From the NCBI RefSeq assembly GCF_900107545.1, contig NZ_FNQZ01000002.1:1-64000 (forward strand): a stretch of DNA of 64,000 bases. Reading direction: 5' to 3'. The DNA comes from Pseudobutyrivibrio sp. ACV-2. Its GTDB lineage: Bacteria; Bacillota; Clostridia; Lachnospirales; Lachnospiraceae. The translations under genes were made by a program, and so were the position numbers. Positions 19,713 to 21,539 of this stretch are shown one piece after another (the stretch's first letter is position 1; every line of letters starts with the position of its first letter). The notes under the pieces are model-generated. The model saw only the letters and a program-made list of their open reading frames with translations. It did not search any database and was not told the origin of the DNA.

Positions 19713-20105
19713 TTAGTTTTTCGTTGTCGCTGCAGCTGGTTTTGCTGCTGGCTTTGGAGGTTCATAAGGAACCTCTACAGTATCTACAAATTTTGCTGGT
19801 CCTGGTTCTTGATATCCAGGAATAATAGTTAAGCACTTTTTCGGACATTTTTCTGTACAATATCCACACTGGATACAATCAAATCTGTTGATACTCCAGG
19901 TTTTGCCTGCTCTATCCACCTTTATTGCTCCTGGTGGACAGCTGCGCATGCACATGCCGCACAAAATGCAGGCATCCTTGTTTATGTCTATGTGGCCCCG
20001 GGTTCTTTCGGGGTAATCCTTTGGCTCAAAAGGGTAGTTGGTTGTGGCGGGCTGTGAAAATAAATTTTTCAGTACCTGCCTGGTAAAAGGTAATATCTGT
20101 CCCAT
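19713..20105 (-). CDS. echF: Ech hydrogenase ferredoxin-like subunit EchF
   Basis: This 130-residue polyferredoxin subunit passes electrons from soluble ferredoxin to the EchC cluster. It carries two [4Fe-4S] motifs, CILCGMCMRSCPPG and CIQCGYCTEKCPKK. The open frame extends upstream to 20186, but GGAG before ATG 20105 and the fact that the extension is palindrome sequence place the start at MGQILPFTRQ. The C-terminus has a short Pro/Ala-rich tail (PPKPAAKPAAATTKN), unusual for this subunit. It is the last gene of the ech operon, separated from echE by a 354-base spacer full of palindromes. Confidence 0.93.
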   Translation of the reverse strand: MGQILPFTRQVLKNLFSQPATTNYPFEPKDYPERTRGHIDINKDACILCGMCMRSCPPGAIKVDRAGKTWSINRFDCIQCGYCTEKCPKKCLTIIPGYQEPGPAKFVDTVEVPYEPPKPAAKPAAATTKN

Positions 20106-20159
20106 AGTTTTTCTCCATGATTTGCAAAAATTCCGCTGGCAGATTGCTATAAGTAGGTC

Positions 20160-20243
20160 GCAGATAGCTATCAATTTATGTAACATTTTTTCATCGCTTT
20201 CGCTATACTCTCAAAAATGCTACATAAATTGCTAGCTATCTGC
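20160..20243 (-). repeat. Long hairpin 1 (31-bp arms, 22-nt conserved loop)
   Basis: Arms 20160-20190 and 20213-20243 pair at 29 of 31 positions without gaps. The loop (20191-20212) starts tcatcgctttcg and on the minus strand contains GC-GAAA-GC, a GNRA-like tip. The outer hexamers GCTGGC (20135) and GCCAGC (20261) extend the symmetry. Confidence 0.9.
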
Positions 20244-20286
20244 TAGTCTTTCTAAAGCCCGCCAGCTAGTGTTTTCTAAACATGCC

Positions 20287-20372
20287 GCTGATTACGCTAA
20301 CAAACTATGTGCCATTTTTTCATCGCTTTCGCTATACTCTCAAAAATGGCACATAGTTTGTTAGCTATCAGC
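20287..20372 (-). repeat. Long hairpin 2 (24-bp perfect inner stem, identical 22-nt loop)
   Basis: Inner arms 20296-20319 and 20342-20365 are perfectly complementary over 24 bp. An outer GCTGAT (20287-20292) pairs with ATCAGC (20367-20372). The loop 20320-20341 is identical to that of hairpin 1, while the arms differ at several positions in a compensating way. Confidence 0.9.
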
Positions 20373-20388
20373 TAGGCTATTTAAATAG

Positions 20389-20424
20389 CAGCTGGCTAGA
20401 CTTTCTAAATCATTCAGCCAGCTG
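20389..20424 (-). repeat. Short hairpin 3 of the palindrome chain
   Basis: CAGCTGGCT (20389-20397) is perfectly complementary to AGCCAGCTG (20416-20424). Its loop contains GACTTTCTAAAT, related to the segment after hairpin 1. It lies 36 bases from the echE stop codon. Confidence 0.8.
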
Positions 20425-20459
20425 GTTTTTCTAAATATGTCGCAACGATTTGTTACGAA

Positions 20460-21539
20460 TTAACGTTCTGTGCAACTTATGCACGGATCTATCGTTAGGA
20501 TGAGAAGTGGTACATCGCCGTATTGGCAGCCTTGGAGGGTTTGGGTTAGGGCTGGGATGTTGGCGAAGGTTGGGGTGCGCACGCGGAAGCGGTCCAGGAA
20601 TTTGGTTCCGTTGGCGCGGACGTGATAGAATGCTTCACCACGCGGCTGTTCCACTCTTATAATGGATTCTCCATTTGGCATTCCTGTTACTTTTGTGTTT
20701 ATCTCGGTGTCAGGTATTTTGGCTACGCACTGTCTTATGATGTCGATAGACTGGAATATTTCGCCTATGCGTACCTCACAGCGGGCGTAGGAATCGCATT
20801 TGTTGCTGGTGATGACTTCGAAATCAATATCGTTGTAGGCTGCGTAACCGAGCTTTCTCATGTCTACATTTATTCCAGATGCTCGCATCATAGGTCCTAC
20901 GGAGCCACGTCTTATGGAGTCCTCTCCAGTGATTATTCCCACATCCACAAGTCTGCTTTTCACTGTGTAATCATCAAGGAAAATACGAGTGGTCTCACGG
21001 ATTTCTTTTTCCATTTCATCTAACTGCTTTACAAAGCCTTCAAGCATTTCCTTTGGCATATCCTTTAATACGCCTCCTATCGTATTTACGGAAAAAATTA
21101 CTCGCCCTCCGGTAGATTCCTCAAACATATCAAGAATTTTTTCACGTAATCTCCAGGAATGCATGAACAACGATTCAAATCCAAATGCATCTGCAAGCAA
21201 TCCTAGCCACAGCAGATGGCTGTGAAGACGGCTCAACTCTGACCATATTGTTCTTAAGTAATCGGCACGGCGAGGTACCTCAACGTTCATGATATCTTCA
21301 AGCGCCATACAATATGCCATGCCATGCATGTAAGAGCAAATACCGCATATACGTTCCGCAACATATACCATTTCATTGAAATCCTTTTTGCTGGTAAGGC
21401 TTTCAAGACCTCGATGTATGTATCCGATGGATGGGATGGCCGCTACTACTGTCTCATCCTCAAGTACTAAATCCAGATGAATTGGTTCAGGAAGAACGGG
21501 ATGCTGTGGTCCATATGGAACTATACTTCTATTGCCCAT
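20460..21539 (-). CDS. echE: Ech hydrogenase large (NiFe-binding) subunit EchE
   Basis: This 359-residue catalytic subunit of a membrane-bound group 4 [NiFe] hydrogenase reduces protons with electrons from ferredoxin. Nickel-iron ligands are Cys65 and Cys68 in RICGICS, and Cys353 and Cys356 in the C-terminal DPCISCTER. The protein ends at the Arg of the CxxR motif, so it has no C-terminal extension for an endopeptidase to remove. It overlaps echD by 11 bases. The fold is shared with NuoD of complex I. Confidence 0.96.
   Translation of the reverse strand: MGNRSIVPYGPQHPVLPEPIHLDLVLEDETVVAAIPSIGYIHRGLESLTSKKDFNEMVYVAERICGICSYMHGMAYCMALEDIMNVEVPRRADYLRTIWSELSRLHSHLLWLGLLADAFGFESLFMHSWRLREKILDMFEESTGGRVIFSVNTIGGVLKDMPKEMLEGFVKQLDEMEKEIRETTRIFLDDYTVKSRLVDVGIITGEDSIRRGSVGPMMRASGINVDMRKLGYAAYNDIDFEVITSNKCDSYARCEVRIGEIFQSIDIIRQCVAKIPDTEINTKVTGMPNGESIIRVEQPRGEAFYHVRANGTKFLDRFRVRTPTFANIPALTQTLQGCQYGDVPLLILTIDPCISCTER

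What the first reader, a model, noticed from the sequence alone, without database searches (positions are those of the whole stretch)
20160..20372. Two long hairpins with an identical 22-nt loop and compensating arm changes inside the ech operon
Hairpin 1 (20160-20243; 29 of 31 arm positions pair) and hairpin 2 (20287-20372; 24-bp perfect inner stem) share the same 22-nt loop. Their arms have diverged, yet each stays self-complementary. At least three arm positions differ between the copies as matched double changes (T-A to A-T, T-A to C-G, A-T to G-C), and an A-C mismatch in hairpin 1 is a C-G pair in hairpin 2. This pattern means pairing itself is kept, by selection on an RNA or DNA fold or by arm-to-arm correction. 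On the ech mRNA the loop carries a GC-GAAA-GC tip. I know of no described element with this design.
Basis: partly seen in the sequence, partly recalled or inferred. Interest (0 to 1): 0.8.

Follow-up and report, generated by a model that had tools for sequence, protein, structure and literature searches.

The report
Self-pairing RNA hairpin family in Pseudobutyrivibrio
A genus of gut bacteria carries many long hairpins between its genes whose tips and feet stay the same while their stems change freely but keep pairing, which suggests that evolution guards the shape of the RNA and not its letters; what the shape does is not yet known.

Summary
The pair in the ech operon belongs to a hairpin family found only in Pseudobutyrivibrio. 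Exact matches to the 18-nt tip, chosen without looking at the arms, sit on long hairpins in 23 of 23 own-genome copies and 32 of 33 named Pseudobutyrivibrio copies, but in 0 of 35 matches in other taxa. Arms of different copies are about 32% identical, yet all 24 arm pairs covary. Departures from Watson-Crick pairing are G.U on one strand only (54 G.U, 3 A.C), so one strand's fold is selected; duplex DNA or arm-to-arm copying alone would not do that. Between co-directional genes that strand is the mRNA strand 22:2 and 22:0 in two samples, only 15:7 in a third. The foot pattern, with either of two tips, occurs 489 times in 27 of 29 genus genomes and once in 216 others. The echE-echF spacer holds an element in 12 of 28 readable genomes and is short in 13. 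No Rfam family passed; Y1 transposase and reverse transcriptase are both missing from several copy-rich genomes. Best reading: a dispersed, RNA-selected hairpin repeat acting on mRNA decay or processing; the function is inferred.

The parts
20160..20243 (-). Hairpin 1 (nearer echF): arms 20213-20243 and 20160-20190, tip 20191-20212; foot stacks straight on, no A/GUA loop
   Evidence: the repeat finder; covariance model R1 76.6 bits, E 3.6e-15 at 20169-20234 (both window copies are among the 55 rows R1 was built from)
20287..20372 (-). Hairpin 2 (nearer echE): foot 20367-20372 / 20287-20292 (GCUGAU/AUCAGC), 1x3 internal loop A 20366 / GUA 20293-20295, arms 20342-20365 / 20296-20319, tip 20320-20341
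   Evidence: R1 81.7 bits at 20298-20363; R2, a model built without any copy carrying this tip, 46.9 bits, E 6.3e-11 at 20283-20376 (R2 did not find hairpin 1)
20193..20210 (-). conserved 18-nt tip GAGTATAGCGAAAGCGAT of hairpin 1
   Evidence: covariation of the inner tip pair
20322..20339 (-). conserved 18-nt tip of hairpin 2
20389..20424 (-). third, smaller hairpin upstream of hairpin 2 in the mRNA sense
   Evidence: repeat I4 and fold; not listed as a match by R1 or R2
20106..20459 (-). echE-echF spacer, 354 nt; short (9-44 nt where measured) in 13 of 28 readable congeners
19713..20105 (-). echF, downstream gene, start taken at 20105; the mechanical ORF begins further up, at 20186, inside hairpin 1
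   Evidence: relatives in 29 of 29 genus genomes with the query starting at 20105. Gene name as given by the finding, not tested against a family library
20460..21539 (-). echE, upstream gene
   Evidence: ORF; gene name as given by the finding

Best explanation
The two hairpins are copies of a dispersed, genus-restricted family of hairpin repeats, mostly intercistronic, that is selected as RNA. SHOWN: a common design (foot stem, usually an A/GUA internal loop, a long stem of free sequence, a conserved tip); pairing kept by compensating changes; G.U tolerated on one strand only; location mostly between genes with a bias to the mRNA strand; presence or absence of whole elements at one site in different species. 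INFERRED: the co-transcribed stem is a rigid double-stranded RNA of similar length from copy to copy that holds the conserved tip and foot motifs in place for a binding factor. In the transcript it acts as a barrier or processing point between two cistrons: it protects the upstream message from 3'-to-5' exonucleases, or is cut by a double-strand-specific RNase, and so sets the echE:echF mRNA ratio. Copies spread by an unidentified route and are lost again.
For: Copies chosen on the tip alone: 23/23 own and 32/33 named Pseudobutyrivibrio have 25 or more pairs enclosing the tip, 0/35 in other taxa, 0/4 viral. Covariation score 0.970 against 0.203 in shuffles, double changes in 24 of 24 arm pairs, slid controls at most 0.209 (its 55 rows were selected for pairing). 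G.U 54 against A.C 3, p 4e-13, under a filter that treats both alike (an earlier, less even cut gave 67 against 2). Between co-directional genes sense:antisense 22:2 of 30 own copies (p 4e-5) and 22:0 of 29 other-tip copies from genus genomes (p 5e-7; one search gave 23:0 but counted one chance match, L210). CM R1: 42 matches in the own genome (its training copies included), 18 of 29 genus genomes, 0 of 60 others. echE-echF spacer: element in 12 of 28, short in 13, other structure in 2, remnant in 1.
Against: Orientation is not absolute: copies of the window's tip in other genus genomes give 15:7 of 24 (p 0.13). A folded single DNA strand would give the same G.U asymmetry. Fold energy does not tell the strands apart. 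No transcript data were at hand; the effect on decay or processing is untested, and no binding factor is known. 13 of 28 species have a short spacer at echE-echF, so the element is not needed there. At three terminator sites other species carry ordinary hairpins instead, so any role is local or optional.
Confidence: 0.55

Rival explanations
1. Purely selfish, non-autonomous mobile hairpin (MITE- or REP-like): the fold is kept because an enzyme reads one folded DNA strand; the mRNA bias only reflects removal of harmful orientations.
For: Near-identical interiors at different loci of sister genomes G012 and G020: L220/L232 96% over 76 nt, L224/L229 95% over 80 nt; L219 and L230/L280 share arms but differ at the tip. 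Presence/absence at orthologous spacers. Copies that look nested in copies (L217, L194, L163, L175; by eye).
Against: Y1 transposase in only 10 of 29 genomes; none in G008, G019, G026, G012, G020, though three copy-rich genomes (G000, G006, G016) do have one. No R2 match in the 11 of 12 fetched Y1 loci that were searched. Arms of different copies are unlike (mean 32% identity; 21 of 1485 pairs above 70%), whereas recent copies of one transposon should share arms. No clear target duplication in the pairs aligned.
Confidence: 0.25
2. Arm-to-arm correction (replication template switching) keeps the arms complementary without selection.
For: Would explain fast arm change with pairing kept: L225/L228 differ at many paired positions at one site while flanks are 89-90% identical.
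Against: Predicts equal G.T and A.C mismatches; observed 54 against 3. Does not explain the conserved tip or the mRNA bias. Replacement by another copy explains L225/L228 as well.
Confidence: 0.07
3. Intrinsic terminators or attenuators with an unusual loop.
For: Some copies lie within stems followed by a T-run, judged by eye (L187, L208, L220, L227; weaker in L192, L223); 6 of 29 other-tip copies lie between convergent genes.
Against: Neither window hairpin is followed by a U-run, and 22 of 30 own and 22 of 29 other-tip copies lie between co-directional genes.
Confidence: 0.1

Closest known systems
REP / BIME elements with TnpA_REP (RAYT)
   Same: Intergenic palindromes in many copies; GTAG at one foot (here part of the search pattern); internal bulge; one folded strand recognised (PMC8266576, passages; PMC3733652, passages)
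   Different: REPs are 20-50 nt palindromes preceded by GTAG; here the unit is 73-86 nt, GU of GTAG is paired with AC of GTAAC, arms are free in sequence, and five copy-bearing genomes named lack a Y1 transposase
Pneumococcal BOX / RUP / SPRITE, ERIC, Correia elements
   Same: Small interspersed repeats with strong folds, transcribed within operons; proposed effects on mRNA decay and termination (PMC3049150, passages)
   Different: There the repeats are found by sequence models; 'compensat' and 'covari' occur 0 times in that text. Here the arms are near-random in sequence and shape, tip and foot persist
bcr1-bcr18 repeats of the Bacillus cereus group
   Same: Group-restricted, some MITE-like and some RNA-like; 84 of 165 and 62 of 155 copies transcribed in two strains; bcr3 co-transcription correlates with longer mRNA half-life (PMC3446304, passages)
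   Different: No sequence or structure comparison was made here; the half-life effect there is a correlation that its authors call hard to firm up

Membership tests
REP/RAYT system | A Y1 (TnpA_REP) transposase in the genome | tested here: not met
   PF01797 in 10 of 29 genomes; none in G008 (39 base-pattern copies), G019 (47), G026 (34), G012 (15), G020 (10); present in G016 (36), G000 (31), G006 (29). All are 89-100% complete, several in many contigs
REP/RAYT system | 20-50 nt palindrome preceded by GTAG | tested here: not met
   Unit 73-86 nt in 63 of 64 pattern matches read; the other, 70 nt, is the match outside the genus, L210. GT pairs with AC in 52 of 52 rows, but both motifs were part of the search pattern; window hairpin 2 has AU/AU there
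MITE (TIR-type) | Terminal inverted repeats shared between copies | tested here: not met
   Foot pairs vary between copies (columns 7-91 and 8-90 of A2); short ends of the ATGAG/CGGAC kind recur in many but not all copies
MITE (TIR-type) | Target-site duplication | tested here: inconclusive
   No clear duplication in the empty/filled pairs aligned; most pairs too diverged
Intrinsic terminator | Stem followed at once by a T-run on the transcribed strand | tested here: not met
   Not met for the two window hairpins; met by eye for some copies elsewhere
Any Rfam 15 family | Score above the family's gathering threshold | tested here: not met
   Only sub-threshold matches, mostly microRNA precursors (window 19900-20700, nine loci)
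RT-mobilised element (retron, group II intron, DGR) | Reverse transcriptase in the genome | tested here: not met
   PF00078 in 15 of 29 genomes; none in G008, G012, G020, G026, G022, G014, all with copies; present in the copy-richest, G019, and in the own genome
Integron attC | Integrase plus paired R and L boxes | not tested
   Set aside on recall of the attC design only; no integrase search was run
mRNA 3'-end stabiliser / RNase III site | Measured change of half-life or cleavage at the hairpin | not testable with these tools
   No transcriptome data at hand

The most novel reading that the evidence does not exclude
A new class of mobile RNA-shaped element that targets hairpin tips. The unit (GUAG ... 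GUAAC) extends whatever stem it lands on: a terminator-like stem, a spacer hairpin or another copy of itself. Arms are set or reset at landing, and landing follows the sense of transcription, by a route that needs neither a resident Y1 transposase nor a resident reverse transcriptase. In its favour: the 4 bp outside the unit are Watson-Crick in 245 of 256 pairs whatever the context, and copies appear nested in tips (L194, L217, L163, L175; by eye). Against: no bare pre-existing stem was found at a filled tip.
Probability: 0.13. Interest if true: 0.85.

Novelty: new variant of a known kind. Interest (0 to 1): 0.62.

Why it matters
Interspersed palindromes are usually recognised by their sequence. 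Here the arm sequence is almost free and the shape is what is kept, with a strand signature that points to the mRNA. That gives a natural set of many different stems on common tips and feet for testing what a bacterial cell reads in an intercistronic hairpin. It also shows a repeat family that plain similarity search partly misses: a search of the own genome with the window pair gave 15 matches, 3 of them the window itself, so 12 other places, against 42 matches for the structure model, the window pair included.

Tried and rejected
Rfam at permissive E-values gave only sub-threshold matches, mostly generic long-hairpin microRNA models. Phages: no match; plasmids: one weak match in Gloeothece covering 15% of the spacer. 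Viral contigs: 4 tip matches, none on a hairpin of 25 or more pairs. Other taxa in the genome collection: 35 tip matches, none with 25 pairs (best 24), taken as chance. RAYT/REP and RT mobilisation: enzymes absent from several copy-bearing genomes, present in others. Inverted duplication at insertion: in L224 against L275 a 27-nt left arm mirrors the right flank and is missing in the sister genome, but a deletion explains it as well. Pre-existing stems without the unit: at the L208, L192 and L187 sites the other species read carry other hairpins of unrelated sequence, the same element, or the element reversed, so tip insertion was not proved. The first wobble count filtered on pairing that counted G.U as paired; it was redone evenly. 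The first orientation count mixed genomes; one search replaced it, one search dropped a chance match (L210) from it, and the less favourable sample is given too (a looser version:10, held chance matches).

Full report
OBSERVATION. They lie in the 354-nt echE-echF spacer of the ech operon, which is read on the minus strand. In that sense the tip is GAGTATAGCGAAAGCGAT, with a GC-GAAA-GC hairpin. The spacer folds far better than shuffles on either strand (z -10 and -11), so energy alone does not tell the strands apart.

FAMILY. The own genome holds 23 exact and 9 one-mismatch copies of the 18-nt tip pattern (the reversed control pattern gave 1 at one mismatch). A covariance model of tip plus arms, trained partly on these, finds 42. 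Chosen on the tip alone, 23 of 23 own and 32 of 33 named Pseudobutyrivibrio copies have at least 25 base pairs enclosing the tip, against 0 of 35 other-taxon and 0 of 4 viral matches (the exception, L145, has 22). The model finds nothing in 60 genomes outside the genus (strict filters).

COVARIATION AND STRAND. On 55 copies without indels, selected from 107 distinct tip matches for at least 18 of 22 paired positions, all 24 arm pairs show double changes. The covariation score is 0.970 against 0.203 in shuffles and at most 0.209 in slid controls. The selection inflates the percentage paired, but not the tip-only result. Arms of different copies agree at 32% of positions. The inner tip pair also covaries (U-A 28, C-G 27). 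Read on the tip strand, departures from Watson-Crick pairing between Watson-Crick neighbours are 54 G.U, 3 A.C and 27 others, against 903 Watson-Crick, in 65 copies. Duplex DNA, cruciforms and arm-to-arm correction treat both strands alike, so one strand's fold is under selection.

RELATION TO TRANSCRIPTION. By simple ORF calls, between co-directional genes the folded strand is the mRNA strand in 22 of 24 own-genome copies (30 examined) and 22 of 22 other-tip copies of the genus (29 examined), but in only 15 of 22 copies of the window's tip in other genus genomes (24 examined). Convergent sites say nothing about orientation. RNA is therefore the likelier carrier of the fold; a folded single DNA strand is not excluded.

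A WIDER FAMILY. Orthologous spacers revealed elements with the same foot and another tip. The pattern GTAGNNNACAA ... TTGTNNNCGTAAC, which accepts either tip, occurs 489 times (my sum of the table) in 27 of 29 genus genomes, 0 to 47 each, and once in 216 others; that one, L210, was set aside as chance by eye. Of 64 distinct copies read without L210, 53 have another tip and 11 the window's. A model built only from 52 other-tip copies still finds window hairpin 2 (E 6.3e-11), so the two groups are related; it does not find hairpin 1, which lacks the A/GUA loop. Window hairpin 2 has AU/AU where the pattern has GU/AC, so the pattern misses it.

TURNOVER. At echE-echF, 12 of 28 readable genomes hold an element, 13 have a short spacer (9-44 nt; one, G021, judged by eye), 2 have other structured spacers and 1, by eye, a remnant (the 12 include G010, whose GTAG...GTGAC element the script's label missed; G028 was unreadable). 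Two near relatives differ: G020 filled, G012 bare. Near-identical units occur at different loci in these two genomes (L220/L232, L224/L229). At some sites both have an element with different arms (L225/L228; L226/L276). Elsewhere one element stays, with a compensating change (L213 in G012 and L260 in G002). Units also sit in terminator-like stems, in opposite orientation between species at two of those sites (L220/L271; L187/L351), and apparently in the tips of other copies (L194, L217).

MECHANISM. Shown: shape selection, strand specificity, location, turnover. Inferred: a co-transcribed rigid stem that presents tip and foot to a factor and acts on decay or processing of the mRNA between cistrons. 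Known repeats offer an analogy only: BIMEs, ERIC, BOX and Correia elements have been assigned opposing effects on decay and termination (PMC3049150, passages), and bcr3 correlates with longer half-life (PMC3446304, passages).

NOVELTY. No Rfam family passed. Six searches of the paper library listed, by title and start of abstract, nothing on such an element in Pseudobutyrivibrio or Butyrivibrio; most subscription journals are not held. I file it as a new variant of the interspersed palindromic repeat kind: a member of no family tested here, set apart by free arms on a fixed tip and foot.

Noticed in passing
G000:C37:210781-211151 (L012, L041-L043, L055): Four tandem copies about 101 bp apart with related but compensated arms; the flanking reading frames look like nadA and nadB by eye, no family search was run.
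   Followed up: partly
L160 (G016) against L172 (G022), echE-echF spacer: A further insertion of about 124 nt splits one arm of the hairpin in G016; a similar sequence abuts a tip copy in L064.
   Followed up: no
L341 (G005) against L340 (G023): A second palindromic insertion of roughly 90 nt lies in the tip of a terminator-borne element in G005 and not in G023.
   Followed up: no
L345 (G023) against L346 and L347: The inner tip hairpin of a terminator-borne copy is missing in G023 while the arms stay intact.
   Followed up: no
L224 (G012) against L275 (G020): Beside what looks by eye like a T-box leader on the other strand, the element's left arm mirrors 27 nt of the right flank and is absent in the sister genome: inverted duplication or deletion.
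   Followed up: partly
L058, L059, L060 and L061, L065, L070, L071: Copies recur upstream of what look by eye like carA and purF in several species, suggesting preferred sites.
   Followed up: no
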